In this document: positions 4,872-33,030 of the stretch, in pieces
How the letters are laid out: every line of letters begins with the position of its first letter
Numbering within the stretch: position 1 is the stretch's first letter
Assembly: GCA_039832905.1 (NCBI GenBank)
Contig: JBDOLX010000051.1
Coordinates: forward strand, 1-39,958
DNA length: 39,958 nt
Direction of reading: 5' to 3'
Origin: Desulfurobacteriaceae bacterium
Lineage (GTDB): Bacteria > Aquificota > Aquificia > Desulfurobacteriales > Desulfurobacteriaceae
The notes under the pieces: generated by a model
Seen by the model: only the letters and a program-made list of their open reading frames with translations
What the model was told of the DNA's origin: nothing
Databases searched by the model: none
Made by a program: the position numbers and the translations under genes

Positions 4872-6257
4872 CTAGATACCTCCAAATAGGGTATGTTCCA
4901 CGTAGAATAAAAGTAAAGCAACAACAACTGTAACTACTGCAACCGGTGTTCCATATTTCATAAATCTGAAGAAGTCTATTTTGTACCCGTTTCTTTCTGC
5001 AATATCAGCAGTAACGATGTTAGCAGAAGCTCCAATAATTGTGAGGTTTCCACCGAGACACGCTCCAAGAGCTAACGACCACCACAGTGGATCCATTACA
5101 TTTCCCATTTGGGTTTCCATACCCTTTAGAACGTAAGCCATAGACATAGTAAATGGAATATTATCTACAAATCCAGAAATAATAGCTGATGAGAACCCTA
5201 CAATTAGAATCCCTTGATGGATATTATCGCCAATCTCTTTAATCAACCAATTGGCTGCTGTTTCAAACACTCCATTAACTTCTAAAGCCCCAACAACCAT
5301 AAAGAGCCCCATAAAGAATATGAGAGTAGTCCACTCAACTTTTTCAAGTATCCAAGCGGGCGATAGACCACTGATTAGAGCCAAAATCGTAGCCATAAAT
5401 AGAGCAATTACTCCTGGTTCCAATCCCAAATTATGTCCAACAATAAATAGAAGAATTGTTATTACAAAAATTCCAACAGATTTCTTCATTAATTTTCTAT
5501 CAAGCAAAGACTCATCAACTTTACCAGATAAGATCTCTTTAAGTTCCTCAGGAGAGGCCTTTGCTTCTAAAAATCCTCCTTTAGCCATCATAAAGTGCAT
5601 AACAATAAGACCAAGTATAAAGGCAATCGTAGCGTAAGGTGCTACTTCTATTAAGAAGTCATTAAAGGTTTTACCTGCAATACTTCCAATTATGATGTTT
5701 GGTGGATCTCCAATCAAAGTTGCAGTACCACCAGTGTTTGAAGCAAGAACTATAGCGATTAGGTAAGGAATAGGATTGAGTCTTAACTTTTCAGCAATGT
5801 TAATCATTACAGGTGCCATGAATAAAACCGTTGTAACGTTATCAAGGAATGCAGAGAAAACAGCGGTTAAAAGAGAAAACACCCAAAGAACCTTTGTTGG
5901 AGAACCTTTCGTAATCTTTACAGCTTTTGCAGCTACAATGTGGAAGAAACCACTTTTACCCATAACTGTAACTATGTTCATCATTCCAAAAAGGAGCAAA
6001 ATAGTATTCTGGTCAATAGCTTCCCAAGCTTTTTCTGGAGTAATTACTCCTATTACCAAGACTAATGATGCTCCAACCAAAGCAGCAATAGTCCTGTGAA
6101 AGAACTTCTCAAGAAGTATCATCGCGTAAGTGGCTACAAATAGTAAGATGGAAAGTTCAGCAAGCTGAGTTTGTGTTAGGTGAATGTTTAAGGCTTGTAA
6201 CAGTCCTCCCACTGTTTCGTGGCCACTTTCCATTCCGTGTCCCATCACTCCTCCCAT
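4872..6257 (-). CDS. nhaD: NhaD-type Na+/H+ antiporter (ArsB/NhaD superfamily)
   Basis: A 461-aa polytopic membrane transporter with about 11-12 hydrophobic segments in two inverted halves. The first half carries FLDNVTT (about 137-143) and NTGGTATLIGDPPN (about 174-187); the second carries FVDNIPF and LGGNLTIIGASAN (about 400-410). These paired motifs are typical of the ArsB/NhaD ion transporter superfamily, and NhaD antiporters fit best; anion transport by an ArsB-like protein cannot be excluded. The first ATG is at 6257, but the fifth codon (ATG at 6245, overlapping the recN TGA as TGATG) has a better-placed GGAGG and is an equally likely start. Ends on TAG. In a thermophilic marine setting it would exchange Na+ against H+ built up by respiration (inference). 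Confidence 0.85.
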   Translation of the reverse strand: MGGVMGHGMESGHETVGGLLQALNIHLTQTQLAELSILLFVATYAMILLEKFFHRTIAALVGASLVLVIGVITPEKAWEAIDQNTILLLFGMMNIVTVMGKSGFFHIVAAKAVKITKGSPTKVLWVFSLLTAVFSAFLDNVTTVLFMAPVMINIAEKLRLNPIPYLIAIVLASNTGGTATLIGDPPNIIIGSIAGKTFNDFLIEVAPYATIAFILGLIVMHFMMAKGGFLEAKASPEELKEILSGKVDESLLDRKLMKKSVGIFVITILLFIVGHNLGLEPGVIALFMATILALISGLSPAWILEKVEWTTLIFFMGLFMVVGALEVNGVFETAANWLIKEIGDNIHQGILIVGFSSAIISGFVDNIPFTMSMAYVLKGMETQMGNVMDPLWWSLALGACLGGNLTIIGASANIVTADIAERNGYKIDFFRFMKYGTPVAVVTVVVALLLFYVEHTLFGGI

Positions 6258-7807
6258 GCCCTTAGTAAATCTTTAGCTGCACTTAAACTTCCTTCAGTAA
6301 CCTTCCCAGAAATCATTATAGCAATTTCTTTTTCAATTTCATCTTTGCAAATCTCCTTTACATTCACTATCCCAGTCTTTTCTTTTTCTACTTTGAAGAC
6401 TTTATCGGCTACTGCTACAACTTGTGGAGAATGGCTTACAGCAACTACTTGAAGTCTTTTAGAGATTTCTTTCAATTTTTTAGCAACCATTGAAAGAACT
6501 TTCCCAGACATACCGGTATCTATCTCATCAAAGATAGTTGTTCTCTTATTTTCTCCAATCAAGCTTAAAACAGAGAGAAGAAACCTTGAAAATTCACCTC
6601 CTGAAATAGATTTATCTAAAGGTGAAAGAGGAAGCTTTGGATTTCCAGAAAAGAGAAATAGAACGGAATCTATGCCAGTAGGGCTGAAGTCTTCCAGTTT
6701 TGAAAACTCTATTTCAAACCTTGCAGAGTCCATTCCAAGCTGAGAAAAGGAGAAAGCTAGATATTCTTTTAGTTTCTCGGCCCCTTTCTTTCTACGATCC
6801 GAAATCTCTAAAGCAAGCTTTTCAAGTTTCTTTTCTAATATTTTCTTTTCTCTTTTTAATTTTTCTATTTCAAAGTCAAGATTTTCCAAAGTTTCTAGTC
6901 TTTTTTTAGCTTCTAGCAAAAACTTTTGTATATCTTCATAAGAACTGCCCTACTTTCTCTTAAGCTTTTCTATCTCGTAAAGTCGGCTTTCAATTTCCTC
7001 TAAAGAAATTTCCTCTTCTGGAACTTGAAAACCTTCTTCTATTTCAGTGTAAACGCTTTCTATTTCATAGTAGATATTATTCAGCTTCTCTAAAAGGTCT
7101 TCTCTATGTTCTAAACGTTCAAGCTCCCTTATCAAAGCCCCAAGCCTTTCAAGGACAGAAAACTCTCCCTCATAGAGAGAAACTTTTGCAAACTCCTTAA
7201 ACGCCTTTATTTTCTCAGCGTTAGAAACCAGTTCCTTTAGCTTTAAAAGTTCTTCTTCTTCTTCTGGAGAAAAATTTACTGCTTCTATTTCTTCGACTTG
7301 AAAACGTAGAATGTCAATTTCCCTATTCTTTGACTGTTCTTCCAGCATCAGTTTTTCAAGTTCTTCCTTTTTCTTCTGATATTCAGAATAAAGTTTTTTA
7401 TACTCTTCAAGTAACCCTTTAGTTCCAGAAAAAAAGTCAAGAAGCTCAAGCTGATATGAAGGTTTCAAAAGTTCTATTGATTGTCTTTGGGACTGAAAAG
7501 CCAAAAGCTCTGAAATTTTTTCCTCTACAATTTTTTGAGGGACTCTCATGCCGTTTAGGAAATACCTTGAACGTCCCCCTTTCATTTCTCTTCTTATAAA
7601 GACTTCCTCATCGCCTAGCCTAAATACAGCTTCAACGAAAGTCCCATCAGTTGCAAATTTTGCTTTCTCTCCTTTAAGAAAATTTATAGAGGAAAGGAGC
7701 AAGGACTTTCCTGCTCCAGTTTCTCCAATTATAACGTTAAGACCTTTTGAGAATAGAAGTTCTGCCGAAATACCACCAAAGGAAAAAAGTCTTAACTCCT
7801 CTATCAT
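6245..7807 (-). pseudogene. recN: RecN DNA repair ATPase, interrupted by one in-frame TAG
   Basis: RecN is an SMC-like ATPase acting in recombinational repair of double-strand breaks. The N-terminal part (7807 down to 6953) has Walker A GETGAGKS (residues 28-35) and the start of the long coiled coil. The C-terminal part has the rest of the coiled coil, the ABC signature SISGGEFSR, Walker B TIFDEIDTGMSG and the switch His in VSHSPQV. Between them a TAG at 6952-6950 interrupts a single continuous frame: the codons after it read GSSYEDIQKFLLEAKK and join directly to the second half. Upstream residues KRK and downstream G show that the TAG replaces the Tyr of the family motif KRKYG, a one-base change. 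With that codon read the protein would be 520 aa, near normal length. As written it encodes a 285-aa N-terminal fragment; a restart at TTG 6919 has no good ribosome-binding site. Confidence 0.93.
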
Positions 7808-19525: not shown

Positions 19526-20941
19526 TTATAACCCTACTTTCAGGAGAAAATCACGGGACACATCAAGGACTGGATTTATGAAGATACCAAGAACAATCAA
19601 TATAACAGCCATTATAGATAAGGGGATTACTATAAATTTCTTAGATGAAAGATTATTTATTGGTTCTTTCAAAGTAGGTTCCTCTAAATACATCTGTTTA
19701 GCAATCCATATATAGTAAGCAACAGAGAAAGCACTATTTAAAAGACCAATCAGTGCAAGCCAAACCATTCCGGCATCGACTGCTGCAGCAAATACAAAAA
19801 CTTTACTGATAAACCCTGCCATTGGAGGGACACCTGCTAAAGAAAGGAGAAATATTAAAAACAAAGCTGCCAAAATGGGTTCCCTTTTCCCAAGTCCTTT
19901 GTAGTCATCCATTGTCCTTGCACCCCAAACGTAAAGAAAAACAGCAAAACACAAGAAAGCTGCTGTTTTCATGAAAATGTAAGCTACTGAGTGATAGACA
20001 ATACCCGTTACACTTAGAGGAACAGATAAAGCAGCAAAGGCTATAAGTGTATAGCCTGTATGGGCAACTGAGGAGTAAGCTAAAATTCTTGAAACCCTTT
20101 TCTGAGCAAGGGCTAAGAGGTTACCAACCGTCATCGTAATAGCTGCAAGAAGCGCAAAGATAAAAGTCAAATTGTTAGAAATTGCTGGAAGAGCTTCATA
20201 AATAACTCTCATAAGAGCTATAAAAGCTGCACTCTTTGATATACCTGTAAGAAGAGCTACCACTCCAGGGCAAGCTCCATCGTAAACATCCGGTCCCCAA
20301 AAATGGAAAGGAAAAACAGTAAGCTTAAATCCAAAACCTGCTAAAATAAAAATAGCTGCTAAAAGTATTAAAGGATCCTTAAACAAGTTGTTTGCTAGTA
20401 CCTCAAAGTTAAAGCTTCCTGTAATTGCATAAAGTAGGGAAACTCCAAAAAGCATTACACCTATTGCCAAAGCACTACTGAAAAAGTACTTAACTCCAGC
20501 TTCTAAAGATTTGTCATCAAAAGAAAAGAGAACCATTAGATACGTAGGCATAGCCATAAGTTCCATGGCAATAATTAGTGAAACAAAGTTGGTACTTGAA
20601 ATTAACAGAAGAGCTCCTGCAGTTGAAATAAGAAGGGAGGCAATAAGTTCATTTACGAATCTATTCTTTTGCAGAACCCAATAGATGACCAGCATTGTCA
20701 TCCAAGAAGCAATAAGTATTAAAAATCCGATGAACCTTGAAACTGCGTCTGTAGTGAAAAATTCCACAAGGATTTTTCCACTGTCTTGGGATAGGCAAAT
20801 CAAGAAACCGGCCAGTATATAACCAACACTTGAGATGATAGATCCTAAAATTCCAGAAATCTTAAATATCCTATTAATTACTGGCAAGAAAGCTCCTGTA
20901 AGGGCAAGTATTAAAACCCCAGCTAAAAAGTTTATATTCAC
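19526..20941 (-). CDS. nuoN: Complex I subunit N (antiporter-like)
   Basis: NuoN is one of three antiporter-like membrane subunits that translocate ions in complex I. The 471-aa protein has about 14 membrane segments, the conserved Glu region AMELMAMPTYLMVLFSF, a broken helix with Lys around AGFGFKLTVFPFHFWGPDVYDGA, and LAYSSVAHTGYTLIAF. Start is GTG at 20941 with GGAGG. It is the last gene of the nuo operon and is in the same frame as nuoM across a TAG stop. Confidence 0.96.
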   Translation of the reverse strand: MNINFLAGVLILALTGAFLPVINRIFKISGILGSIISSVGYILAGFLICLSQDSGKILVEFFTTDAVSRFIGFLILIASWMTMLVIYWVLQKNRFVNELIASLLISTAGALLLISSTNFVSLIIAMELMAMPTYLMVLFSFDDKSLEAGVKYFFSSALAIGVMLFGVSLLYAITGSFNFEVLANNLFKDPLILLAAIFILAGFGFKLTVFPFHFWGPDVYDGACPGVVALLTGISKSAAFIALMRVIYEALPAISNNLTFIFALLAAITMTVGNLLALAQKRVSRILAYSSVAHTGYTLIAFAALSVPLSVTGIVYHSVAYIFMKTAAFLCFAVFLYVWGARTMDDYKGLGKREPILAALFLIFLLSLAGVPPMAGFISKVFVFAAAVDAGMVWLALIGLLNSAFSVAYYIWIAKQMYLEEPTLKEPINNLSSKKFIVIPLSIMAVILIVLGIFINPVLDVSRDFLLKVGL

Positions 20942-20950
20942 CTGAACCTC

Positions 20951-22396
20951 CTATTTAAAAAGTTGTGAAAGGGTATCAACACTTAGGTTATAGACATCAA
21001 AGACAACAGAAGGAACAATTCCAACAAGGATAAAGGCAAGTATGTACATTGCAAGGGGTATATTTTCTATTAGGCTAAGTTCTTTTAGGCTACTTAATCC
21101 CTTAAAAGAGTCTTTGAGAGGACCAAAAACAGCTCTTTGAAGCATCCACATAAAGAACCCAGCACTTAAGGCACTCGCTAGGGGAACGATAATCATAATC
21201 CACCCGTAGTATTCAAATGCAGAAACCATTACGGTAAGTTCCCCAACAAAACCTGCAGTTCCAGGGAGTCCAACAGCTGCAAGAACTCCAATTACAAACA
21301 TTGTCATAAGAACAGGAATCTTTTTCATAAGTCCACCAAGCTCAGAAATGTACCAAGTATGGGTTTTGTGGTGGATATAACCAGCAACCATAAAAAGAAG
21401 AGAAATTATCAAAGCGTGTCCTACCATTTCGTAAATTGCTGCAGATATTCCGCTTGCCGTAAGAACAGAAAGTCCCAACAGAACAAATCCCATATGGTTG
21501 ATACTTGAATAAGCAACCATTCTTTTAATGTGATCCTCGGCAAGCGCTCTAAATCCCGCGTAGAAAATTGTCAAAACAGCTATAAAAGCCATAAGAGGGG
21601 CAAAAAATTTAGATTCTTCAGGTAGAACAAATAATTCCCACCTCAAAAGACCATAAGCTCCCATTTTCAAAAGAAGTCCTGCCAAGAAAACGGAAATTGG
21701 AGAGGGGGCTTGAACGTGAGCATCGGGAAGCCAAGTATGAAAAGGAACAATAGGCATTTTTACAGCAAACCCTATGAACATTAAAATCCAAACAAGCTTT
21801 GCAACACTTGTATCTAAAGAAACCCCTGCTAAGTTTAGAAAGTCAAATGTGTGTGTATTCAGAAAAAGAACAACTATTCCAAGAAGGAGGAAAACGCTTG
21901 CAAGATGGGTGTATATGAAAAACTTCATAGCTGCGTAAATTCTGTTTTCTGCTCCCCAAATACCAATGTGGAAGAACATCGGAACAAGAGTAAATTCCCA
22001 AAAAATAAAGAACCAAAGAAGATTAAGAGAGACAAAAACTCCAACCATAGGTCCAAGGAACAATAAAATTAGGAAAAAGTAAGCTCCACTCTTTTCTACG
22101 TTCCAAGAGGAAAGGGTCACTGTAATAGCTAAGAAAGAAGTAATCACTAAAAGAACTAAGGAAATGCCATCAACTGCAAGGTGGAGATTAAAGTCAAGAG
22201 GAGGATAAATAGGATAGAATTCTTCGAAAGCAAAACCACTACCCGGGTATTTTACTACCAAGTATGTAGTGCAAAGTGCCAAAAAGAAGGAAACAGCAAG
22301 AGAAATGTATTTTGGAAGGTCTTTACTTATCTTCTCTGCTAAGTAAGCAAATGGCGCTGCAATGACTGGAACTAAAATCATACTAAGAAGAACCAT
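20951..22396 (-). CDS. nuoM: Complex I subunit M (antiporter-like)
   Basis: A 481-aa polytopic antiporter-like subunit. The catalytic Glu lies in FFIFWEFTLVPMFFHIG and the Lys/His of the second half-channel around GFAVKMPIVPFHTWLPDAHVQ; RMVAYSSINHMGFVLLG is also conserved. Length is normal. Ends on TAG, 12 bases before the nuoN start; since the protein is full length this TAG is a real stop. Gene order L-M-N is canonical. Confidence 0.97.
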   Translation of the reverse strand: MVLLSMILVPVIAAPFAYLAEKISKDLPKYISLAVSFFLALCTTYLVVKYPGSGFAFEEFYPIYPPLDFNLHLAVDGISLVLLVITSFLAITVTLSSWNVEKSGAYFFLILLFLGPMVGVFVSLNLLWFFIFWEFTLVPMFFHIGIWGAENRIYAAMKFFIYTHLASVFLLLGIVVLFLNTHTFDFLNLAGVSLDTSVAKLVWILMFIGFAVKMPIVPFHTWLPDAHVQAPSPISVFLAGLLLKMGAYGLLRWELFVLPEESKFFAPLMAFIAVLTIFYAGFRALAEDHIKRMVAYSSINHMGFVLLGLSVLTASGISAAIYEMVGHALIISLLFMVAGYIHHKTHTWYISELGGLMKKIPVLMTMFVIGVLAAVGLPGTAGFVGELTVMVSAFEYYGWIMIIVPLASALSAGFFMWMLQRAVFGPLKDSFKGLSSLKELSLIENIPLAMYILAFILVGIVPSVVFDVYNLSVDTLSQLFK

Positions 22397-22407
22397 TTAC
22401 TCCCCCT

Positions 22408-24237
22408 TTAGAAGACTAAGATAAGAAGTGAAAGTGCTATAACACCCATGGCAAAGTAAGTAAGGTAGTGAATTAGATCTCCAGTCTGTATCTTTCTAAA
22501 CCTGTCCCAACACCACAAAGAAAGTCTCGCAGTGCCGTTTACCGCTCCATCAACCACTTTAGTATCAATCCACTCAACAGCCTTAGCAATCGAACCGTAG
22601 AATATGTTTCTACAAATCCACTTTATCGCATCATCTACCATCCAGCCCTTGTAAAGGAAAGTGTTTATAGCCTCTCCCATTGGGTGGGATAGAAACTTTT
22701 GGGTCGTAACTGCCCTTTTGAAGTAGATGAAGTAGGTAAGCACGAAAAGGACAAACATTGCAACCATCGTGGCAACAAATAGGTTTGCGTAGAATGGTTC
22801 ATGGACGTTTTCAAACAAGAAATGAACTATGTCTTCCTTATAGAAAGCTGTTAGGATAGTTAAAGTTGCAAGAACGTAAAGAGGAAAAAGCATTATTGGA
22901 TAACTTTCTTTGGCTCTTTGGGAAAATTCAGAAGGATTTCCTGTAAAGATGACAAACCACAGTCTAAACCCGTAAGCTACAGAAAGAACAGCTGCTACAA
23001 AAGTAAGACCAAAAAGAAATGGATTACCGAAACTGAAAGATTCTGCAAGTATCCAGTCTTTACTGAAGAAACCGTTGAAAGGAGGAATTCCCGAAAGAGC
23101 CAAGATACCTACCAAGAAAAGAATAGCAGTTTGGGGCATAAACTTGTAAAGTCCTCCAAGCTTGAAAGCATCCTTAGTGTGGTGAGTCATATGAATTACA
23201 GCACCTGCTGAAAGGAAGAGAAGTGCTTTAAAAATAGCGTGATTCATAAGATGAAAAATTCCCGCAGCAGCCGATCCAACCCCTAAGGCAACAAACATTA
23301 AGGCTAAGTGTTCCATAGTGGAAAAAGCGAGAACTTTCTTTATTTCCCTATGAGCTAACGCCCCAGTAGCAGCTATAAAAGCGGAAATAGCACCTACAAA
23401 AGCAACGATTATGAGAACGTTGGAATAGTCAAAGAATGGAAACATCCTTGCAACAAGGTAAATTCCAGCATTAACCATAGTAGCAGCGTGAATAAGAGCA
23501 GAAACGGTCGTTGGACCTTCCATTGCATCTAGAAGCCAAGGAAAAAGAGGAAATTGAGCTGACTTTCCAATGGCTCCAATAAAAAGGAGTGTTGCTATTA
23601 AAAATCCAAGTTCTACACTGAATGCATGAATAACACTTAAAGCATTAAGCTCTAGGAAGTTAACCGTTCCAAGCAAAACCCAAGCAACAATAATTCCTGC
23701 AAACATAAAAACATCGGCAAATCTCGTCATAACAAATGCTTTAAGGGCAGCCTCTGCTGCACTTCTTTTCCAATACCAGTAACCAATAAGTAAGTAGGAA
23801 CAAAGTCCCACACCTTCCCAAAAGATGTAAAGACCTATAAGATTACTTGCAAAGACCAATCCAACCATAGAACCGATGAAAAAGAGCTTTTCGAAGTAAT
23901 ACCTGTGGGGAGAACTGTCTTCCTCCATATATCCTTTCGAAAAGATAATGTCCAAAAGCCCTATTCCTGTAGCTATCAAAGCCATAAGTATGGCCAAGTT
24001 ATCAACATAAATACCGAGAGGAACAGAAAAGCTTCCAAATTTAAACCACTCAAACTCATGTACAACAGGAGATTCCCCTATGTTAAGGGCTATATATGTA
24101 GATATTCCAAAGCCAATTAATCCTGTAACAACCGCTACATAAAACGAGTTCCATCTATTTGTAAACTTCCCTACAAGGAAAGCTAAAATACTTCCAAGAA
24201 AGAAAATTCCTATATTTAGGTAAGCAAACTTTTCCAT
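22408..24237 (-). CDS. nuoL: Complex I subunit L (antiporter-like, with lateral helix)
   Basis: A 609-aa protein, the largest antiporter-like subunit. It has FWEGVGLCSYLLIGYWY with the conserved Glu, GAIGKSAQFPLFPWLLDAMEG with the channel Lys, STMEHLALMFVALG, and a C-terminal part long enough for the amphipathic helix that runs along subunits M and N. Length is typical. It sits 1 base from nuoK and 11 from nuoM. Confidence 0.97.
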   Translation of the reverse strand: MEKFAYLNIGIFFLGSILAFLVGKFTNRWNSFYVAVVTGLIGFGISTYIALNIGESPVVHEFEWFKFGSFSVPLGIYVDNLAILMALIATGIGLLDIIFSKGYMEEDSSPHRYYFEKLFFIGSMVGLVFASNLIGLYIFWEGVGLCSYLLIGYWYWKRSAAEAALKAFVMTRFADVFMFAGIIVAWVLLGTVNFLELNALSVIHAFSVELGFLIATLLFIGAIGKSAQFPLFPWLLDAMEGPTTVSALIHAATMVNAGIYLVARMFPFFDYSNVLIIVAFVGAISAFIAATGALAHREIKKVLAFSTMEHLALMFVALGVGSAAAGIFHLMNHAIFKALLFLSAGAVIHMTHHTKDAFKLGGLYKFMPQTAILFLVGILALSGIPPFNGFFSKDWILAESFSFGNPFLFGLTFVAAVLSVAYGFRLWFVIFTGNPSEFSQRAKESYPIMLFPLYVLATLTILTAFYKEDIVHFLFENVHEPFYANLFVATMVAMFVLFVLTYFIYFKRAVTTQKFLSHPMGEAINTFLYKGWMVDDAIKWICRNIFYGSIAKAVEWIDTKVVDGAVNGTARLSLWCWDRFRKIQTGDLIHYLTYFAMGVIALSLLILVF

Positions 24238-24238
24238 C

Positions 24239-24547
24239 TTACCACCTCAAGTTTTTAATTTTGGATGGTATAACTTCCCCAAAACGTTTATAGAAGACGA
24301 TGACTATCGCTAGTCCAACAGCAGCTTCAAGAGCAGCAAGACCTATTGTGAAAAATGTAAAGATTTGACCCTCTATACCTCTTTGGGCCGAAAAGATCAC
24401 AAAGTTTAAGTTTGCTGCATTGATAATCATTTCTACTGAGAAGAGCATTCTTATTACCGACTTTCTTGATAAAAGCCCATAGACTCCAACAGCAAATAGT
24501 GAAAAAGACAGGAAAAGATATGCATGAACATCAGCCTCAAGTAACAT
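24239..24547 (-). CDS. nuoK: Complex I subunit K
   Basis: A 102-aa, three-helix membrane subunit homologous to MrpC. The two conserved membrane glutamates lie in MLFSVEMIINAANL and GLAALEAAVGLAIV, both needed for ion translocation in other species. The ATG directly abuts the TAG stop of nuoJ and the two frames are in register. Confidence 0.96.
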   Translation of the reverse strand: MLLEADVHAYLFLSFSLFAVGVYGLLSRKSVIRMLFSVEMIINAANLNFVIFSAQRGIEGQIFTFFTIGLAALEAAVGLAIVIVFYKRFGEVIPSKIKNLRW

Positions 24548-25024
24548 CTACTTTTCCTCCTTCTTCTTCGTAATAATTGCATTTGCCATGTAAAGAATTG
24601 CAGAAACAATAAATCCAAGAACTATTGTGAAAAACGAGTACTTTTCTACAAAAACGGTTCCAAGATACTTAGTTGAGTAAACGGCATAAGGGAAAGTGTC
24701 TATTGCGCTTAAAAAAGAAAGAACCGTTCCAATGGTAAGTATTAAAAGACTTAAGACAATAGCACCTATTGCTTTCCCCTTAGGTTTTTTATAACTTTCC
24801 CCAATCATCATAATTGCAAAGAGAACAAGAATAGTAACTCCACCAGCATATATGGCAAGTTGAACGCTTCCAAGAACTGGCATTCCTATTCCAAAGTAGA
24901 CAAGAGCTATTTCCGATAGAAGAACGACAAAGGCTATTGCAGCCCAAAGGAGAGAAGTAGCTTCTAAAGCAACAATTGCGGAAGCTATGATTACTGCGTA
25001 GATAATCCAAAAATAGACATTCAT
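24548..25024 (-). CDS. nuoJ: Complex I subunit J
   Basis: A 158-aa membrane subunit with five predicted helices. The conserved third helix, with Tyr and Gly around GSVQLAIYAGGVTILVLFAIM, forms the pi-bulge seen in complex I structures. The start overlaps the nuoI stop (ATGA). Ends on TAG directly followed by the nuoK ATG. Confidence 0.95.
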   Translation of the reverse strand: MNVYFWIIYAVIIASAIVALEATSLLWAAIAFVVLLSEIALVYFGIGMPVLGSVQLAIYAGGVTILVLFAIMMIGESYKKPKGKAIGAIVLSLLILTIGTVLSFLSAIDTFPYAVYSTKYLGTVFVEKYSFFTIVLGFIVSAILYMANAIITKKKEEK

Positions 25025-25533
25025 TTTTCCTCTCCCTTTTCCTGCTTTTTCAAAGCTTCAAGCTTTTTCTTTTCCATTTTTTCTTCAAAAAGCTTTGCTT
25101 TCTCTATTGTTTCTTCTAAATTTTCCGGTTCAAAAACAAACTGCGATAGGTTTTCCCAAATAGCCGGTTCAACAAACATCCTGTAATCTTTTGTTAGCCT
25201 TATAGCTTTTTTAGGTTTCACAGGACAAGCATCTTCACAGAAACCGCAGAAGATACATTCATTAGCTCTCACACGGGGAACAGCTCTTGGTTTCTTTACT
25301 CCAGTCGGTATCATTTCTATACAGTTGACAGGGCAAGCTCTTGCGCAAAGGCTACAACCAATACAAAGGTCAGCTCGTATAATGTGCTTTCCTCTGTAGT
25401 TATACTCCCTTTCTATTCCCTTGTCCCACCAAATTTCTGTAGCTTTTGGTTCAAAAATTGCTTTCGTTATTCTGATTACCTTTTTAGTAATCTCTATTGG
25501 TAACTTAACAGCGTTTTTTAACTCCATGTTCAC
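25021..25533 (-). CDS. nuoI: Complex I subunit I (two [4Fe-4S] clusters)
   Basis: A 170-aa ferredoxin-like subunit that carries clusters N6a and N6b. Two full motifs are present: CIGCSLCARACP (Cys57, 60, 63, 67) and CIFCGFCEDACP (Cys93, 96, 99, 103). An additional Cys71 follows the first motif. With NuoEFG absent, this subunit is a likely entry point for electrons from an unknown donor such as ferredoxin (inference). Two start codons (ATG at 25533 and 25527) are possible. Confidence 0.96.
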   Translation of the reverse strand: MNMELKNAVKLPIEITKKVIRITKAIFEPKATEIWWDKGIEREYNYRGKHIIRADLCIGCSLCARACPVNCIEMIPTGVKKPRAVPRVRANECIFCGFCEDACPVKPKKAIRLTKDYRMFVEPAIWENLSQFVFEPENLEETIEKAKLFEEKMEKKKLEALKKQEKGEEK

Positions 25534-25540
25534 TCCTTCC

Positions 25541-26485
25541 TTAAGAAAGAATCATCTTTACAGCAGTAACAAAGACAAGGTTAAGTAGCGCTAAAGGAGT
25601 TAAAATCTTCCAACAGAACTTGAGAAGTTGATCCATTCTTATCCTTGGTGTAGAAGCTCTTACAACAAAAGTGAAGAGGTATAAAAGAACCATCTTTGCA
25701 ATAAGCCAGAAAACTCCTGAAAAGAAAATTCCTTTATATCCCCCCAGGAAAAGAGTTGCAGCAAGGGCATAAAGAGCAAAAAGTTCTATAAGCTTTGATA
25801 GAACAAGAATTGCATAGTTAAATCCTCCAAACTCCGTTAAGAAACCGTAAACTATTTCCTGTTCTGCCTCTGGAATATCAAAGGGAGGTCTATCTGTAAC
25901 TATTAAAGCTGCTGTGATAAAAATTAAAAAAGCAGGAAAAAGGATCAAAAAGCTTATTAGAGAACTTTTTTCTACTATTTCCATGTGGTTTAGCGTTCCG
26001 TAAAAGACAGCAGCAGAAAGGGCAGAAAGCCAAAGGGGAATTTCTCCAGAAATCATTTGATTAACAACTCTTAATCCACCGATGAAAGGATACTTACTCT
26101 TTGACGCCCAACCTGCGTAAAAGAAGATTGGGGGCATACTTGTAACGATTGCTAAAGCGATGAGAAGATCAAAGCTTGTACTGACTATAAAAGAACTATC
26201 GGAAAAAGGAATAAAGGCTATTAAAATTGCAACCATTAGGAAAGCAACGAAAGGAATAAGAGAAAAAAGGAGTTTATTTGCCCTTCGCTGAATTATGAAT
26301 TCTTTCTGTAAAAGCTTAAAAACATCTGCTGTTGTCTGTAGTATTCCCCTTTTTCCAACGTAGTAAGGACCAACTCTAAGATGAACATCTGCAAGTATCT
26401 TTCTCTCCATGTAAAAGACTATCAAGAACACGACAAGTAAGAAGAGAAAACCGGGAAATACAAGTGCTTTAAACCAAGCTTCCAT
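25541..26485 (-). CDS. nuoH: Complex I subunit H
   Basis: A 314-aa membrane subunit with eight helices that forms the floor of the quinone cavity and the start of the proton path. Conserved features include ADVHLRVGPYYVGKRGILQ near residue 33, the acidic loop PFDIPEAEQEIVYGFLTEF, and FTFVVRASTPRIRMDQLLKF near the C terminus. Normal length. It lies ten bases from nuoD and seven from nuoI. Confidence 0.96.
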   Translation of the reverse strand: MEAWFKALVFPGFLFLLVVFLIVFYMERKILADVHLRVGPYYVGKRGILQTTADVFKLLQKEFIIQRRANKLLFSLIPFVAFLMVAILIAFIPFSDSSFIVSTSFDLLIALAIVTSMPPIFFYAGWASKSKYPFIGGLRVVNQMISGEIPLWLSALSAAVFYGTLNHMEIVEKSSLISFLILFPAFLIFITAALIVTDRPPFDIPEAEQEIVYGFLTEFGGFNYAILVLSKLIELFALYALAATLFLGGYKGIFFSGVFWLIAKMVLLYLFTFVVRASTPRIRMDQLLKFCWKILTPLALLNLVFVTAVKMILS

Positions 26486-26495
26486 TTTTCCTCCT

Positions 26496-27650
26496 TTACC
26501 TATCTATATCCCCATGACACATATAAAGGGAAGCAAAAATGACAGGAACATCGGCAAGCTTTACTCCTTTCATTATTTCCGGCATTGCCCAAAGATTTGC
26601 AAAGGAAGGAGCTCTCATTTTAAGTCTATAAGGGCCTGTTCCTCCATTACTTATAAGGTGAAAACCGAAACAGCCCCGTGCCCATTCAACGTTGACGTAA
26701 GCTTCTCCTTTTGGAAGCTTTATCGGAAACTTTGTTCTATATTCCCCTTCAGGAAATCCCTCTATTGCCTGTCTTATTATCTTCGCAGACTCTTTAATCT
26801 CATCAAACAAAACACAGTATCTTGCGTAAGAGTCCCCTTCTTCCCTTGTAACTACTTTAAACTCAAAATCTCCATAGGCAGCGTAAGGATAGTCCTTTCT
26901 TATATCTGAAGCTACCCCAGAAGCCCTTAAAGCAGGACCTGCAAGTCCAAGTTCAACAGCTTTTTCTTTTGGAACAACGCCAACACCTACCGAACGAAGT
27001 TTTAAAGTGGGGTTATCTATGAAGACTTCTTCATAGCGAGGGATAAACTCCTTCTCAAGGTAATCTATTGCTTCAACCATTTTTTCTATAAACTTCCCCG
27101 TTGGTTCATATCTCACTCCACCTGGAATAATGGAAGATGTAGCTATCCTCTGCCCTGAATAAACTTCAAAAGCATCTAAGAACTTTTCCCTTGCCACAAG
27201 AGCCCACTGGGAAGGAGTATGAACTCCTAAAACTCCTACAAATCCTCCAAGACCAAGTAGGTGGCTTACAATTCTTCCACCCTCGCAAAGGATTACCCTC
27301 ATGTAATCTGCTTTCTTGGGAACTTCTATTCCAGCAATCTTTTCAGCAGCTATTGAATATCCTGCCATTGTTCCAAAGTTGTCTATAAAGCAAGCCCTCT
27401 CTACATTAACAATCGCGTTAATCCAATTTCTATACTCAACAAGTTTCTCTAGAAGTCTTAAAACGTATCCAATATCGGGGTCAACTTTTACAACCTCATC
27501 TCCATCAATCCAAACCTTTAATCTCATAGGACCGCTGGCCGGGTGTTGAACTCCCCAGTTAAGCTGAAGAAGTTTCTCTTGTAAAAGCCCTAGATCACTG
27601 CCACTTACTTCTTTTTTCTCTTCAAGAATAAACTCGTATCCAAACTCCAT
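26496..27650 (-). CDS. nuoD: Complex I subunit D (49-kDa type), atypical quinone site
   Basis: A 384-aa peripheral-arm subunit derived from [NiFe] hydrogenase large subunits. It is clearly NuoD: DPDIGYVLRLLEKLVEYR, VPKKADYMRVILCE, LGLAGPALRASGVASDIRKDYPY in pieces, and the C-terminal RAPSFANLWAMPEI. However, the family motif HPxxHG, whose His (His38 of Thermus Nqo4) binds the quinone head group, reads HPASGP here (residues 37-41) with one residue missing and no His. The partner Tyr (Tyr87 in Thermus) is Phe88 (RACFID). Electron acceptor or binding mode may therefore differ. Start overlaps the nuoC stop (TAATG). Confidence 0.95.
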   Translation of the reverse strand: MEFGYEFILEEKKEVSGSDLGLLQEKLLQLNWGVQHPASGPMRLKVWIDGDEVVKVDPDIGYVLRLLEKLVEYRNWINAIVNVERACFIDNFGTMAGYSIAAEKIAGIEVPKKADYMRVILCEGGRIVSHLLGLGGFVGVLGVHTPSQWALVAREKFLDAFEVYSGQRIATSSIIPGGVRYEPTGKFIEKMVEAIDYLEKEFIPRYEEVFIDNPTLKLRSVGVGVVPKEKAVELGLAGPALRASGVASDIRKDYPYAAYGDFEFKVVTREEGDSYARYCVLFDEIKESAKIIRQAIEGFPEGEYRTKFPIKLPKGEAYVNVEWARGCFGFHLISNGGTGPYRLKMRAPSFANLWAMPEIMKGVKLADVPVIFASLYMCHGDIDR

Positions 27651-28108
27651 TACTTAGTCCCCTTGCGATGCTTTTTAAACTGGTAAGACTTTCTCAAAGG
27701 AAATGTTCCTTCTGCCCACTCTGGTAAGAGCATAACTTCAAGCCGAGGATTTCCTACAAACTCAACTCCAAACATTTCCCAAGCTTCTCTCTCATGGGGC
27801 TGTAAAGCTGGAAAAATATCTGAAACACTAGGAACTGCTAGATTATTTTCAGAAAGTTCTATTCTGACTATTACGAACTTCTTTATGTAGATATCTTCCA
27901 AGATGTAGTTAATCTCAAAACCTCTACCTTCTGGGGTATAGTCAACAACAGATATAGTATGAGGATAGCTAAAACCGAAGTCTTTTAGAAATTTCAATAA
28001 ATCCCTTATTTTTTCCTTCTCTCCAAAGATTAAAAGCATATTTGTATCGTAGCTCTCGGTTTTGAACCCAAAAAGTTCATCCACTTTTTTCTTAACATCC
28101 TCTAACAT
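27650..28108 (-). CDS. nuoC: Complex I subunit C (30-kDa type)
   Basis: A 152-aa peripheral-arm subunit. The family core is near the end: PALQPHEREAWEMFGVEFVGNP followed by RLEVMLLPEWAEGTFPLRKSY in shorter pieces, the site where other NuoC proteins have the ERE-DMFG motif and the PLRKDF motif. It is a separate gene, not fused to nuoD. Length is slightly short but complete. It is coupled to nuoD by a TAATG overlap and follows nuoB by nine bases. Confidence 0.94.
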   Translation of the reverse strand: MLEDVKKKVDELFGFKTESYDTNMLLIFGEKEKIRDLLKFLKDFGFSYPHTISVVDYTPEGRGFEINYILEDIYIKKFVIVRIELSENNLAVPSVSDIFPALQPHEREAWEMFGVEFVGNPRLEVMLLPEWAEGTFPLRKSYQFKKHRKGTK

Positions 28109-28117
28109 TTTCTCTCC

Positions 28118-28588
28118 TTAATACTCTATTTGCTCCATTTTGTTTGGATACTTTTTGGCTGCATTTTCCCTATCTTTGAGAATTATTTTTTTAAGTCTTA
28201 AAAATCCTTCCAAAATCGCTTCAGGATTTGGAGGACAACCTGCAACAAAAACATCAAAAGGAATGTACTGGGAAACATCAACAGCTACAAAGTCAGAATC
28301 CCAGTAAGGTCCTCCACCAGCTGCACAAGCTCCCATACCAAAAACATAACGGGGTTCCGGCATTTGTTGGTAAGTTCTTAAGAGAACTGGAAGAACTTTT
28401 TTTGAAACAAGTCCTGTAACTATGATAAAGTCTGCCTGTTTTGGACTTGGGGTCATCATAAAGCCGTACCTTTCCCAATCAAAACGGGGTCCCACGAGGG
28501 CTAAAATCTCTAAGGAGCAACAACCACTACAAAAGTGCACTCCCCACGGAGAATTAGCCCTTGCCCAGTCAAAGAACTTTAAGATCAT
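28118..28588 (-). CDS. nuoB: Complex I subunit B (cluster N2)
   Basis: NuoB holds the terminal cluster N2, which hands electrons to the quinone. The 156-aa protein has CSGCCSLE (Cys23-Cys24 pair plus an extra Cys20), GMGACAAGGG (Cys86) and VAGCPPNPEAI (Cys116), giving the four N2 ligands. The start is placed at ATG 28588, which overlaps the nuoA stop (TAATG) and follows GGAGG. An earlier ATG at 28660 lies deep inside nuoA and would add a non-homologous extension. Confidence 0.95.
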   Translation of the reverse strand: MILKFFDWARANSPWGVHFCSGCCSLEILALVGPRFDWERYGFMMTPSPKQADFIIVTGLVSKKVLPVLLRTYQQMPEPRYVFGMGACAAGGGPYWDSDFVAVDVSQYIPFDVFVAGCPPNPEAILEGFLRLKKIILKDRENAAKKYPNKMEQIEY

Positions 28589-28920
28589 TATTTCCTTCCT
28601 CCAAGCATCACGTAGGATAGGGGAATCATTAGAAGAAAGGAGAACAGAATAAACACCCACCCAAAAGCGGGATCTCCCTTTCCAATAGCATAAAGACCGA
28701 AAAAGACTCCAGCTATGTCCATAGCTATAAAGATGATCGCATAGAAGTAATATTGAAAGTTAACACTTGAGATTATTGGTTCTGGAGCTGGAAGCCCACA
28801 CTCGTATGTATCTTCTTTAACAGGGTGAGGATTTCGAGGGGAAATTGCTACCGATAAAAGCCATAGCGAGAGTCCTGCTATTGCCATAACAATAACAAAA
28901 ACTATGAAGTTGTAAAGCAC
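28588..28920 (-). CDS. nuoA: Complex I subunit A
   Basis: A 110-aa membrane subunit with three helices. The conserved loop KEDTYECGLPAPEP (with Glu and Cys of the TM1-TM2 loop) and the region around FYAIIFIAMDIAGVFFG with its membrane acid are present. Start is GTG at 28920, preceded by GGGAGG at five bases. It is the first gene of nuoABCDHIJKLMN. The 205-base gap upstream holds the promoter and the phased repeats. Confidence 0.95.
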   Translation of the reverse strand: MLYNFIVFVIVMAIAGLSLWLLSVAISPRNPHPVKEDTYECGLPAPEPIISSVNFQYYFYAIIFIAMDIAGVFFGLYAIGKGDPAFGWVFILFSFLLMIPLSYVMLGGRK

Positions 28921-28947: not shown

Positions 28948-28976
28948 ATCCTACCACATTGTTAAAAATTTGTAAA
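28948..28976 (-). promoter_or_regulatory. nuoA promoter
   Basis: On the minus strand a TTTACA hexamer (28976-28971) lies exactly 17 bases before TAGGAT (28953-28948), a good sigma-70 layout, with a TG two to three bases ahead of the -10. The predicted start is about 20 bases before the nuoA GTG. The -35 is itself one unit of the phased repeat array. Confidence 0.6.
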
Positions 28977-28998
28977 CATTTTGTAAAAGATTCGTAAA
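28960..28998 (-). promoter_or_regulatory. Four 11-bp-phased TTTACA/TTAACA repeats (Pho-box-like)
   Basis: Read on the minus strand the hexamers are TTTACG (28998-28993), TTTACA (28987-28982), TTTACA (28976-28971) and TTAACA (28965-28960), each separated by five bases. This spacing and sequence match the direct-repeat binding site of PhoP/PhoB-type response regulators (TTAACA repeats in Bacillus). The array covers the -35 and spacer of the nuoA promoter. The other 120 bases of the 205-base pstB-nuoA gap show no clear signal; no convincing terminator follows pstB. Confidence 0.55.
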
Positions 28999-29125: not shown

Positions 29126-29905
29126 TTAGCCGAACCTTCCGGTAATGTAGTCTTCAGTTAGTTTTTCTTTCGGTTTTATAAATAGGTCTTCGGTTTTATT
29201 GAACTCTATAAGCTCTCCAAGGTACATGAAGGCAGTATAATCTGAAACTCTCGCAGCTTGTTGCATGTTATGGGTAACTATTATTATTGTCAATCTGTCT
29301 CTAAAACTAACAACAAGTTCCTCTATCTTTGCAGTTGAAATAGGGTCTAAAGCAGACGTTGGTTCATCAAAGAGGAGAACTTCAGGTTCTACCGCAATAG
29401 CTCTTGCTATACAGAGTCTTTGCTGTTGCCCTCCAGAAAGTCCAGAAGCAGGATCCTTTAATCTGTCTTTAACCTCATCCCAAAGGGCAGCATCCTTTAA
29501 AGCTTTTTCTACTCTGTCTTCAAGTTCCGATTTATTTTTTATTCCTTTAAGTTTTAACCCGTAAGCAACGTTATCAAATATGGACATAGGAAAAGCTGTC
29601 GGTTTTTGAAAAACCATTCCAACTCTACTTCTTAATTTAATTAAATCATAATCTTTATCTAGGATATTTTCTCCATCAAGTAAAATTTTTCCTTCGTATC
29701 TATTTCCAGGGTAAAGATCGTGCATTCTGTTAAAACACCTTAAAAGCGTTGTTTTTCCACATCCAGAAGGACCAATAAGAGCAGTTATTCTCTTTTCAGG
29801 AACTTTAAAGGATATGTTCTTTAGAGCATGTTTACTTCCATAATAGAAATTAAGGTTCTCTACGCTAATTTTTGCATTCTCTTCTATTTCAATTATGAAC
29901 GCCAT
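29126..29905 (-). CDS. pstB: Phosphate ABC transporter ATPase
   Basis: PstB powers high-affinity phosphate import. The 259-aa protein has Walker [10 protein letters not shown] (from residue 45), the Q-loop [20 protein letters not shown] with the Pst-specific FPMSI, signature [16 protein letters not shown], Walker [14 protein letters not shown] and the switch His in IVTHNMQQA. It follows pstA by 17 bases and is the last pst gene; phoU, often next, is absent. Confidence 0.97.
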
Positions 29906-29922
29906 AAACTCACTCCTCCAAG

Positions 29923-30765
29923 TTACTTTTTGAACTTCCAGCTAGCTAAAACTCTACCTAAAATGTTTGCTCCCAAGACGCTAACTGTGAGAATTAGAGC
30001 TGCTGCCCAAGCAAGTTCTTGCCAGTACTCATAAGGGCTCATAGCGTAATCGTACATAGTAACAGTTAAAGATGCCATAGGTTGAGTCATATCAAGAGTG
30101 AAAAAGTTATTGTTAAAGGATGTAAAGAGTAAAGGCGCTGTTTCCCCTCCAATTCTTGCCACAGACAAAATTACTCCTGTTAAAATTCCTGTAATGGCAG
30201 ACCTATAAACTATGTCCTTAATTACCTTAAACTTTGTAGCTCCTAAAGCGTATCCAGCTTCCCTAAGTTCTGGAGGAACAAGCCTTAACATGTCGTCTGT
30301 TGTTCTTAAGATAATTGGAATCATCATAATTGCTAAAGACACAGCTCCAGCAATTCCCATAAAGTGTCCAACCGGCTTTACCAAAATGGCATAAATGAAA
30401 GTACCCACTACTATGGAAGGAATACTCATCATTATATCTGAAAGGTCTCTAACAACTTTTGCTAGTCTACTGTTTTGTCCGTATTCAGCAATGTAAGTTC
30501 CTGCTAAAATTCCAAGAGGAATACCAATAACTGTAGCCGTTAAAACTATTAGAGCCTGACCAACTATTGCGTGTTTAAGCCCTCCGCTATTTTCCCCAGG
30601 AGAAGGTGGATCTCCTATAAACACATCTAAAGAAATGGCAGAGAAACCTTTATAGGCAAGAGTTCCCAATATCCAGAAAAGCCACACAATTCCAAAAATT
30701 GCTGCAAAAGTCGAAAGGACGAGAATAATGTTGTTTACGATCTTTCTCCTTTTAACTGCGTCCAA
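29923..30765 (-). CDS. pstA: Phosphate ABC transporter permease PstA
   Basis: A 280-aa permease with six predicted membrane helices. The ABC permease EAA-type loop is at [20 protein letters not shown], followed by the PstA-typical [15 protein letters not shown]. The N-terminal helix and the periplasmic segment after it, [19 protein letters not shown], are characteristic. Start is TTG at 30765, three bases after the pstC stop and preceded by GAGAGG; no ATG or GTG is available that keeps the first helix. Confidence 0.95.
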
Positions 30766-30768
30766 CTT

Positions 30769-31692
30769 TTACCTCTCAACCTTTTTCAAGAATACAAACT
30801 TTCCAATTGCTATTATTAAAAAGCTCATTACAAAGAGAATTAAAGCTAAGTAGAAAAGGCTTGAAAGGTAAAGGTCTGTATCGGCTTCTGTAAACTCGTT
30901 AGCAAGAGTAACGGTAATTGAAGTAGCAGGTTCCAGTATTGAGTGAGGTATTATTGGTTGATTACCCATAACAAACGTAACAGCCATTGTCTCACCAAGA
31001 GATCTACCAAGAGAAAGAATTATTCCTCCAATTACTCCAAGCTTAGCGTAAGGAATAACAACATCTTTCATAACATCCCATTTAGTTGCCCCAAGTGCAT
31101 ATGCGGACTCTTTTAAGATATTTGGAACCATATTAAATGAATCTCTTGCAATAGCAGCAGTAAAGGGCAGAATCATTATTGAAAGAACAATAGAAGCTGT
31201 AAGGAGACCTATTCCGGGAGTAAAGCCTGAGAACCATTCGCCTATTACGGGAATTTTCCCTAAGGTTGCATGAATTATAGGTTGAACTTTATCCCTCATA
31301 AAAGGAGCAAAGTAGAAAAGTCCCCACATACCGTAAATAATACTTGGAATAGCTGCTAAAAGCTCGACTGCAACCCCTACTGGAGTTCTCAAAAAGTGTG
31401 GTGCAATTTCTGTTAAGAAAATGGCTATGCCAATCGCAACAGGTACAGCTATCAGAATAGCAATAAAGGTACTTACAATCGTTCCAAAGATTGCAGGAGC
31501 TCCCCCGAATTTTTCAAGTGGAGGATTCCAAGTAGTTGATGTAATAAACTCCCAAATACCAAAAGTGTTTATAGAAAGGGATGACTCCTTGTAAAGAACT
31601 ATTGCAAGAAGTCCTAAGATTATGACAACAAGTAGAGTGGAGAATAGAGCTACCTTACTAAAAAGCCAGTCAAAAACTCTTGCCTTTTTCAC
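30769..31692 (-). CDS. pstC: Phosphate ABC transporter permease PstC
   Basis: A 307-aa permease with six membrane helices. Conserved features are the TTWNPPLEKFGGAPAIFGTI periplasmic segment, LLAAIPSIIYGMWGL, the cytoplasmic coupling loop KESAYALGATKWDVMKDV, and SLGRSLGETMAVTFVMG. Start is GTG at 31692 after GGAG. It is the first pst gene; no pstS for the phosphate-binding protein lies in the window. A Pho-box-like pair sits about 50 bases upstream. Confidence 0.96.
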   Translation of the reverse strand: MKKARVFDWLFSKVALFSTLLVVIILGLLAIVLYKESSLSINTFGIWEFITSTTWNPPLEKFGGAPAIFGTIVSTFIAILIAVPVAIGIAIFLTEIAPHFLRTPVGVAVELLAAIPSIIYGMWGLFYFAPFMRDKVQPIIHATLGKIPVIGEWFSGFTPGIGLLTASIVLSIMILPFTAAIARDSFNMVPNILKESAYALGATKWDVMKDVVIPYAKLGVIGGIILSLGRSLGETMAVTFVMGNQPIIPHSILEPATSITVTLANEFTEADTDLYLSSLFYLALILFVMSFLIIAIGKFVFLKKVER

Positions 31693-31722: not shown

Positions 31723-31757
31723 AGTATATTACCATTTTTAAGTAAAAATTTTGTTAA
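31723..31757 (-). promoter_or_regulatory. Pho-box-like repeat pair and -10 upstream of pstC
   Basis: On the minus strand TTAACA (31757-31752) and TTTACT (31746-31741) are separated by five bases, the same 11-bp phase as in the nuoA array. A -10-like TATACT follows at 31728-31723. No good -35 lies at 17 bases from it, as expected for an activator-dependent promoter. The pair begins one base after the stop of the DUF2225-like gene. Confidence 0.5.
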
Positions 31758-31758
31758 G

Positions 31759-33030
31759 TTATTTCATTTGTGCCTCATATTTATGGAGGTAATAAATATG
31801 CTTTTTATGTATCCAGCAGTAAAACTTCCAATCTCTTTTGTCTATTAACCGTTCTGCATATTCTATGGCTTTTTTATAACGGGCACGCATAGGAGGGTCA
31901 AACTCTGAATCCATTTTATTAAAAGCTTCTTTCGTTAACATCAAAAATTGCTCTGCTAGTTCAAACTCCTTAATTTGACGTGCAATTTCGGTTAGAGTTA
32001 ATCCTTCTAGTACAGAATTATCTCTGAAAGTTTCTTCTTCAAGAATCGCTTTAACAAGGAGAGATAGAGCTCTCTTTCTCATCCAATCGCCCATTATCCT
32101 GTAGTATTTGTAAACGCTTAAATGATGTGGATAATCCTCCAGGAATCCCTATACTGAATCGGCTTCTAAGAAGTAGTCGGAAACACTTAAAGCATTTATC
32201 CCAGCAGAAGAGTAGAAACCTGTTTCCTCATTTATAACAGAAGCCCACAAATAGGCAAGCTCCTTCCAATTCCGAATAGCATCCTCTTTTAGATAAGAAA
32301 TTATCAACTCATATTTACCTTCTTTAAGTAATTTTTTAAACACCTCTACTTTCAAGCTCTTTTTATTTTTCTCTTTTTCCTCTTTTCTCCTTCTTAAGGA
32401 AAAGTTTAAAAATTTTACTCTGAAACTCTCATCTAACACAGGAAGCGTTACCGGCAAAATGTTGGTTTCTATTAAGTAATCTTTTCTCAAAGGAAAATTA
32501 TTTTCCAAGTAAAAACATCTAACAATTTCTTCCATAAACTCGTCTTCAGTAATCATTCCAGCGCTAAGTCCTTCATATAACGCAGAAGCCTCGCACTTTT
32601 CAACATCTTCAAAAGAAATATTTTTTGACTCTTGAGATGATTCCCTTTCAGTTTCTGCCTTCTCTTCTTTCTCTTTCGAAATTGCTTTTTTTAATCTTTT
32701 CACTTTTGATTCCTCTATTTCCTCTCCTTCCTCCTCTTCCCCTTCTTCATCTTCTTCCTTTAGTCTTCGTAGTAACTCTTTTATCTCTGTTCCTAATTCT
32801 AATTCTTCGTACATTTCTTCTATCTCAGGATCTTCATCTTCTATTTCGATAGATCCTATTTCATAATCCGTATAAGTGCAATTTGGACAGACTTGAAGGT
32901 TGAAAAAAGGAGGAATCTTTCTGAAATCCAAAGAAGGATTCCCAAAGTATGAGAAACTCATTACAGATCTTTGTGTACTTACTGCTCCACAAACGTCACA
33001 CTTTACACATCTGTGAACTACGTATGTCAT
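31759..33030 (-). pseudogene. DUF2225-like zinc-ribbon/TPR protein, interrupted by one in-frame TAG
   Basis: The N-terminal part (293 aa) has a zinc ribbon, RCVKCDVCG (Cys8, 11, 14) and VCPNC (Cys48, 51), as in DUF2225 proteins, then a long Glu/Lys-rich low-complexity stretch (about 60-150) and a helical region ending SDYFLEADSV. A TAG at 32151-32149 follows. The same frame continues as GFLEDYPHHLSVYKYYRIMG and on for 111 further residues with TPR-like helices (EIARQIKEFELAEQFLMLTK), without another stop until TAA at 31759. With the TAG codon read the protein would be 423 aa. An independent start at ATG 32094 is possible but only weakly preceded by AGGA, and would ignore the protein-like 18 codons between. 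Function of the family is unknown. Confidence 0.75.

What the first reader, a model, noticed from the sequence alone, without database searches (positions are those of the whole stretch)
28960..28998. Pho-box-like array with perfect 11-bp phase on the nuo promoter
Seen: four hexamers TTTACG, TTTACA, TTTACA, TTAACA start at 11-base steps and cover the -35 and spacer of a good promoter (TTTACA-17-TAGGAT). Known: OmpR-type regulators such as PhoP and PhoB bind tandem repeats with this phase, and Bacillus PhoP uses TTAACA-like units. Inference: the nuo operon may respond to phosphate, an unusual link of respiration to phosphate supply. The pst genes lie just upstream.
Basis: partly seen in the sequence, partly recalled or inferred. 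Interest (0 to 1): 0.62.

Follow-up and report, generated by a model that had tools for sequence, protein, structure and literature searches.

The report
Switch array on hydrogen-autotroph energy genes
The four evenly spaced repeats in front of the complex I genes are real, and the same array sits in front of the reverse-Krebs-cycle, acetate and other energy genes across a family of vent bacteria, so it looks like the control site of an undescribed CO2-fixation and energy regulon rather than a phosphate switch.

Summary
In detail: four TTWACR hexamers at exact 11-base steps on the minus strand, 28998..28960; shuffles of the window give none. The phosphate reading is not supported. In 22 Desulfurobacteriaceae genomes the three-unit pattern gives 71 matches at 61 distinct sites, against 0 for the reversed control. 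By my annotation all 61 lie at energy or central-carbon loci: nuo, sucCD, aclBA, acn, idh, frd, nfnAB, acetate uptake. None is at a phosphate gene. Phosphate promoters here carry a related but different box: two TTAACA units, mostly 15-16 bp before a -10. In nuo arrays TTTACA is the -35 and the last unit lies in the spacer, 12 bp before the -10. In the sister family the three matches fall at sucC, idh and an orphan OmpR/PhoB-type response regulator gene whose ortholog is in 20 of 22 family genomes. Published proteomics of Desulfurobacterium shows most array targets shifting together with H2 supply, regulator unknown (PMC12724263). Best model: that orphan regulator binds the arrays and tunes rTCA and electron-flow genes to H2 or redox state, probably by blocking core promoters. 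Binding, sign and signal are inferred.

The parts
28960..28998 (-). Array of four 11-bp phased units: TTTACG 28998-28993, TTTACA 28987-28982, TTTACA 28976-28971 (also the -35), TTAACA 28965-28960 (inside the promoter spacer)
   Evidence: conserved upstream of nuoA in 16 further family genomes (one with TTTGCA as first unit)
28948..28953 (-). -10 hexamer TAGGAT, 17 bases after the third unit and 12 bases after the start of the last unit
   Evidence: same 12-base spacing in most nuo arrays of the family
28588..28920 (-). nuoA, first gene of the nuo operon that the array controls
19526..28920 (-). nuo operon (nuoA to nuoN), target of the array
   Evidence: naming by sequence inspection
29126..31692 (-). 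pstC-pstA-pstB, upstream neighbours on the same strand; neighbourhood not conserved in G002
31741..31757 (-). Two-unit Pho-box-like pair TTAACA-N5-TTTACT upstream of pstC; related but distinct site type, not part of the array regulon by my reading

Best explanation
The array is an operator for tandem binding of an OmpR/PhoB-family response regulator. It belongs to a regulon conserved in Desulfurobacteriaceae that covers complex I, the reductive TCA cycle (sucCD, aclBA, acn, idh, frd), NfnAB, a hydrogenase operon and acetate uptake/activation. The most likely regulator is the orphan response regulator called class A here (own contig C64); a paralog, class C, shares its recognition helix and sits beside one type of array. 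Protomers would line up head to tail on one face of the DNA, over the -35 and spacer (nuo, acn, gltD-like) or over an extended -10 (sucC, nfnA), competing with RNA polymerase. Phosphorylation, perhaps by the orphan NtrY-like kinase on contig C18, would link occupancy to H2 or redox state. Shown: array, phase, conservation, targets, promoter geometry, an array in front of the regulator gene in the sister family. Inferred: binding, identity of the regulator, kinase, repression rather than activation (about 60:40), the H2/redox signal.
For: 71 matches at 61 sites in 22 genomes against 0 reversed-control matches, all at energy/carbon loci by annotation. Up to 5 phased units kept at nuo in G002 while the flanking gene differs. 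Class A is in 20 of 22 genomes with a near-invariant recognition helix; class C, whose gene is divergent from an array, groups with it and has DVYIxRLR(K/R)KLG in common. In the sister family an array lies about 30 bp upstream of the class A type gene, others at sucC and idh. The geometry relative to the -10 differs from that of the Pho boxes. The H2-responsive proteome of D. thermolithotrophum HR11 contains most of the targets (PMC12724263).
Against: No binding or expression data for any regulator. Class A has no array at its own gene in the home family. G020 and G011 (incomplete genomes) have no class A gene found. NuoA-N itself was not quantified in the proteome; NuoGFE moves opposite to the rTCA enzymes. 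Own aclB carries only one unit. The match with the proteome was made by eye and across strains. Malate dehydrogenase, which has a one-mismatch array in G004, did not change with H2.
Confidence: 0.62

Rival explanations
1. One reading: PhoB binds the array and ties complex I to phosphate supply.
For: Same 11-bp phase as the Pho boxes of the family; the pstC promoter in the window has a two-unit relative; the own genome has PhoB and PhoR; pst genes lie upstream in many relatives.
Against: No three-unit array at any phosphate gene in 22 genomes. Pho boxes have two units, A at letter 3 in 19 of 21 units against T in 80 of 95 direct-array units, and a different -10 spacing (not corrected for relatedness). 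PhoB has a different recognition helix (VDVHxKHLRDK). The targets make sense as energy genes.
Confidence: 0.12
2. The array is bound by the same orphan regulator but as an activator, in place of good -35 contacts.
For: PhoB-type regulators often activate from boxes over the -35; reversed arrays lack a clear -35.
Against: At nuo the units themselves give a fair -35 (TTTACA), and the last unit fills the spacer, 12 bp before the -10, where a bound protein should block polymerase; the family's Pho boxes sit at 15-16 bp.
Confidence: 0.3
3. A regulator outside the OmpR family binds the direct repeats.
For: No binding data; some other families also bind tandem repeats.
Against: Phase and unit match OmpR-family boxes (WalR TGTWAH-N5-TGTWAH); arrays lie at OmpR-type regulator genes in two clades.
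Confidence: 0.1
4. Chance repeat in an AT-rich promoter.
For: The promoter is AT-rich and TTTACA resembles a -35.
Against: Zero in shuffles, zero reversed-control matches in 22 genomes, control-level counts in other Aquificota families, same target genes in genus after genus.
Confidence: 0.02

Closest known systems
WalR/YycF/VicR box (TGTWAH-N5-TGTWAH) of Firmicutes
   Same: Read on the other strand the units are TGTAAA/TGTTAA at 11-bp steps, fitting the published consensus (PMC4168254; the first unit, CGTAAA, misses one letter).
   Different: 3-5 units instead of 2; targets are rTCA and respiration genes, not cell-wall genes; class A scores 172 bits against a cut-off of 340 for YycF.
RpaB HLR1 box ((G/T)TTACA(T/A)(T/A), two repeats) of cyanobacteria
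   Same: Same TTTACA core; RpaB is a redox-responsive OmpR-type regulator of energy genes (PMC9241938), so it may work alike.
   Different: HLR1 is described as two repeats 2 nt apart, i.e. about a 10-base step; class A scores 192 bits against the RpaB cut-off of 330.
PhoB/PhoP Pho box
   Same: 11-bp phased direct repeats over the -35; class A's best curated model is PhoB.
   Different: Class A is below the PhoB cut-off (234 against 296 bits); Pho boxes of this family have two TTAACA units, another -10 spacing and other genes.

Membership tests
Pho regulon (PhoB/PhoP box) | Same box at phosphate genes of the genome | tested here: not met
   No three-unit array at pst/phoB/porin promoters; they carry two-unit TTAACA boxes
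Pho regulon (PhoB/PhoP box) | Box spacing to the -10 as at the family's phosphate promoters | tested here: not met
   12 bp at nuo in most genomes against mostly 15-16 bp at Pho boxes
Pho regulon (PhoB/PhoP box) | Response to phosphate starvation | not testable with these tools
   needs expression data
OmpR/PhoB-family operator | Direct repeats of about 6 bp at 11-bp steps | tested here: met
OmpR/PhoB-family operator | Binding by an OmpR-family protein | not testable with these tools
   only indirect: arrays beside class A and class C regulator genes
WalR/YycF system | Unit fits TGTWAH-N5-TGTWAH | tested here: met
   three of the four nuo units; consensus from PMC4168254
WalR/YycF system | Regulator reaches the curated YycF cut-off | tested here: not met
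   172 bits against 340
RpaB/HLR1 system | Regulator reaches the curated RpaB cut-off | tested here: not met
   192 bits against 330

The most novel reading that the evidence does not exclude
A single orphan response regulator is a main transcriptional governor of reductive-TCA carbon fixation and electron flow in Desulfurobacteriales. It reads H2 or redox state and acts through arrays whose repeat units are themselves the -35 or the extended -10, so that array orientation goes with promoter type.
Probability: 0.42. Interest if true: 0.82.

Novelty: new variant of a known kind. Interest (0 to 1): 0.68.

Why it matters
How autotrophs that use the reverse Krebs cycle switch it up and down is largely open; my paper searches found no named regulator for Aquificota. 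[quoted passage not shown] This analysis supplies an operator, a target list and a candidate regulator, all testable with simple binding assays, in a phylum often used to think about early carbon fixation.

Tried and rejected
Phosphate regulon: rejected as the main reading (see rival). Chance: rejected by shuffles and the reversed control. Inverted-repeat regulators such as Rex or FNR: considered; the units are direct repeats, so not pursued. Dependence on pst neighbours: rejected, since G002 has the array without pst. An array at the class A gene within the home family: looked for in seven genomes, none seen. The one-mismatch hit on contig C111 lies inside a reading frame and is taken as chance. 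Paper searches for a known rTCA regulator in Aquificota found none (most subscription journals are not covered). The letter-3 test ignores relatedness of the genomes and is only descriptive. My -10 picks are consensus scores, not mapped transcription starts. nuoF was not found in the own genome, perhaps an assembly gap, so the nuoEFG promoter was not examined.

Full report
What was claimed and what is there. The minus strand 28998..28960 holds TTTACG, TTTACA, TTTACA, TTAACA at exact 11-base steps. The third hexamer is a -35 with a 17-base spacer to TAGGAT, and the fourth lies inside that spacer. NuoA starts at 28920, with pstCAB upstream on the same strand. The four-unit pattern is unique in the window and absent from 100 shuffles. 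The genome belongs with Desulfurobacterium: its genus mate G001 is a record titled uncultured Desulfurobacterium sp..

Where else it occurs. In the own genome the three-unit pattern with at most one mismatch gives eight matches, against zero for the reversed control. Besides nuo they lie at sucC, between two divergent fumarate reductase genes, at a gltD-like gene, upstream of a hydrogenase operon (hyd-ech type, by inspection), and between rtcB and a contig end, where relatives have aconitase. One hit is inside a reading frame.

Family-wide. In 22 genomes of the family, exact three-unit matches number 71 at 61 distinct sites in 21 genomes, with zero control matches. I read the genes around each site, naming representatives by NCBIfam or by sequence inspection: nuo 16, sucCD 15, aclBA 9, a response regulator divergent from a porin/acetate transporter/acetyl-CoA synthetase locus 6, aconitase 5, nfnA 3, fumarate reductase 2, isocitrate dehydrogenase 2, a second nuo operon 2, acetate symporter 1. 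None is a phosphate gene. Orthologous sites are not independent, so the weight lies in about ten target groups and in the clean control.

Other Aquificota. In 136 genomes of the phylum, matches outside the order are at control level (5 matches, 5 control matches in 112 genomes). The sister family (two genomes) has three matches: upstream of sucC, between idh and an aminotransferase gene, and about 30 bp upstream of a response regulator gene (argF-like gene divergent) whose recognition helix reads VVDVYVSRLRKKLGEKGKLIKTVPRLGYKL, the class A type.

Phosphate contrast. PhoB and PhoR are encoded together, near a porin and PstS in the own genome and in several relatives. The porin/PstS promoters, and pstC of several relatives, carry two units, YTTAACA-N4-YTTAACA. 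The -10 lies mostly 15-16 bp after the start of the second unit, whereas in nuo, gltD-like and several acn arrays it lies 12-13 bp after the start of the last unit. Letter 3 is A in 19 of 21 Pho units and T in 80 of 95 direct-array units; reversed arrays are mixed, 50 T of 86. The window's own pstC has TTAACA-N5-TTTACT, so the two site types are close and cross-talk is possible.

Regulator candidates. The own genome has two OmpR-type genes: class A, an orphan beside a cytidine deaminase-like gene and a hisD-like gene, and class B, the PhoB. A tree of 53 family members puts class A in 20 of 22 genomes and groups class C, the one adjacent to arrays, with class A. A and C share DVYIxRLR(K/R)KLG; class B mostly has VDVHxKHLRDK. 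Class A scores highest against PhoB models but under every curated cut-off shown, so it is not filed as PhoB, WalR or RpaB. Of four HisKA kinases found in the own genome, three have a response regulator beside them; the fourth, NtrY-like, on contig C18, has none and is a possible partner. Other kinase classes were not searched.

Promoter architecture. In direct arrays (nuo, acn, gltD-like) TTTACA is the -35 and the last unit fills the spacer. In reversed arrays (sucC, nfnA) the gene-proximal unit forms TGTTAAAAT or a near form, an extended -10. A bound regulator would cover core promoter elements, which favours repression by occlusion; this is inference.

Physiology. In a chemostat proteome of D. 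thermolithotrophum HR11, low H2 raised fumarate reductase, succinyl-CoA synthetase, ATP citrate lyase, aconitase, isocitrate dehydrogenase, acetyl-CoA synthetase, HydBCDA and Ech; NuoGFE fell; NuoA-N was not quantified; malate dehydrogenase, fumarase, pyruvate oxidoreductase and ATP synthase did not change (PMC12724263). The overlap with the array targets is striking but was compared by eye, across strains. The authors name no regulator and leave the question open.

Verdict. Observation confirmed; OmpR-type reading supported; phosphate reading not supported. Most likely this is the operator of an undescribed energy and rTCA regulon.

Noticed in passing
window 31741-31757 (-): Two-unit pair TTAACA-N5-TTTACT in front of pstC, the Pho-box type of the family; its first 16 bases equal those of the sucC array of the same genome.
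   Followed up: yes
L277 1087-3057 (-), own contig C18: Orphan NtrY-like histidine kinase (656 aa) with similar kinases in G001, G002 and G013 and no response regulator beside it; candidate partner of the orphan class A regulator.
   Followed up: partly
L088 about 1975-2060 and the equivalent aclB upstream regions: The aclB arrays sit directly before a G/C-rich hairpin with a T run between idh and aclB, so the promoter or terminator arrangement there is unclear.
   Followed up: no
window 6245-7807 (-): Two adjacent reading frames look like the two halves of one RecN protein separated by about 30 bases: possible frameshift or assembly error.
   Followed up: no
window 31759-33030 (-): Two frames upstream of pstC read on as if one protein (DUF2225-like by inspection) were interrupted near 32150.
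   Followed up: no
L107 1990-2075 and L263 1971-2025: In genus g7, which lacks class C, an array of four units lies between a promoter and the start codon of a UspA-ActP (acetate symporter) operon.
   Followed up: partly
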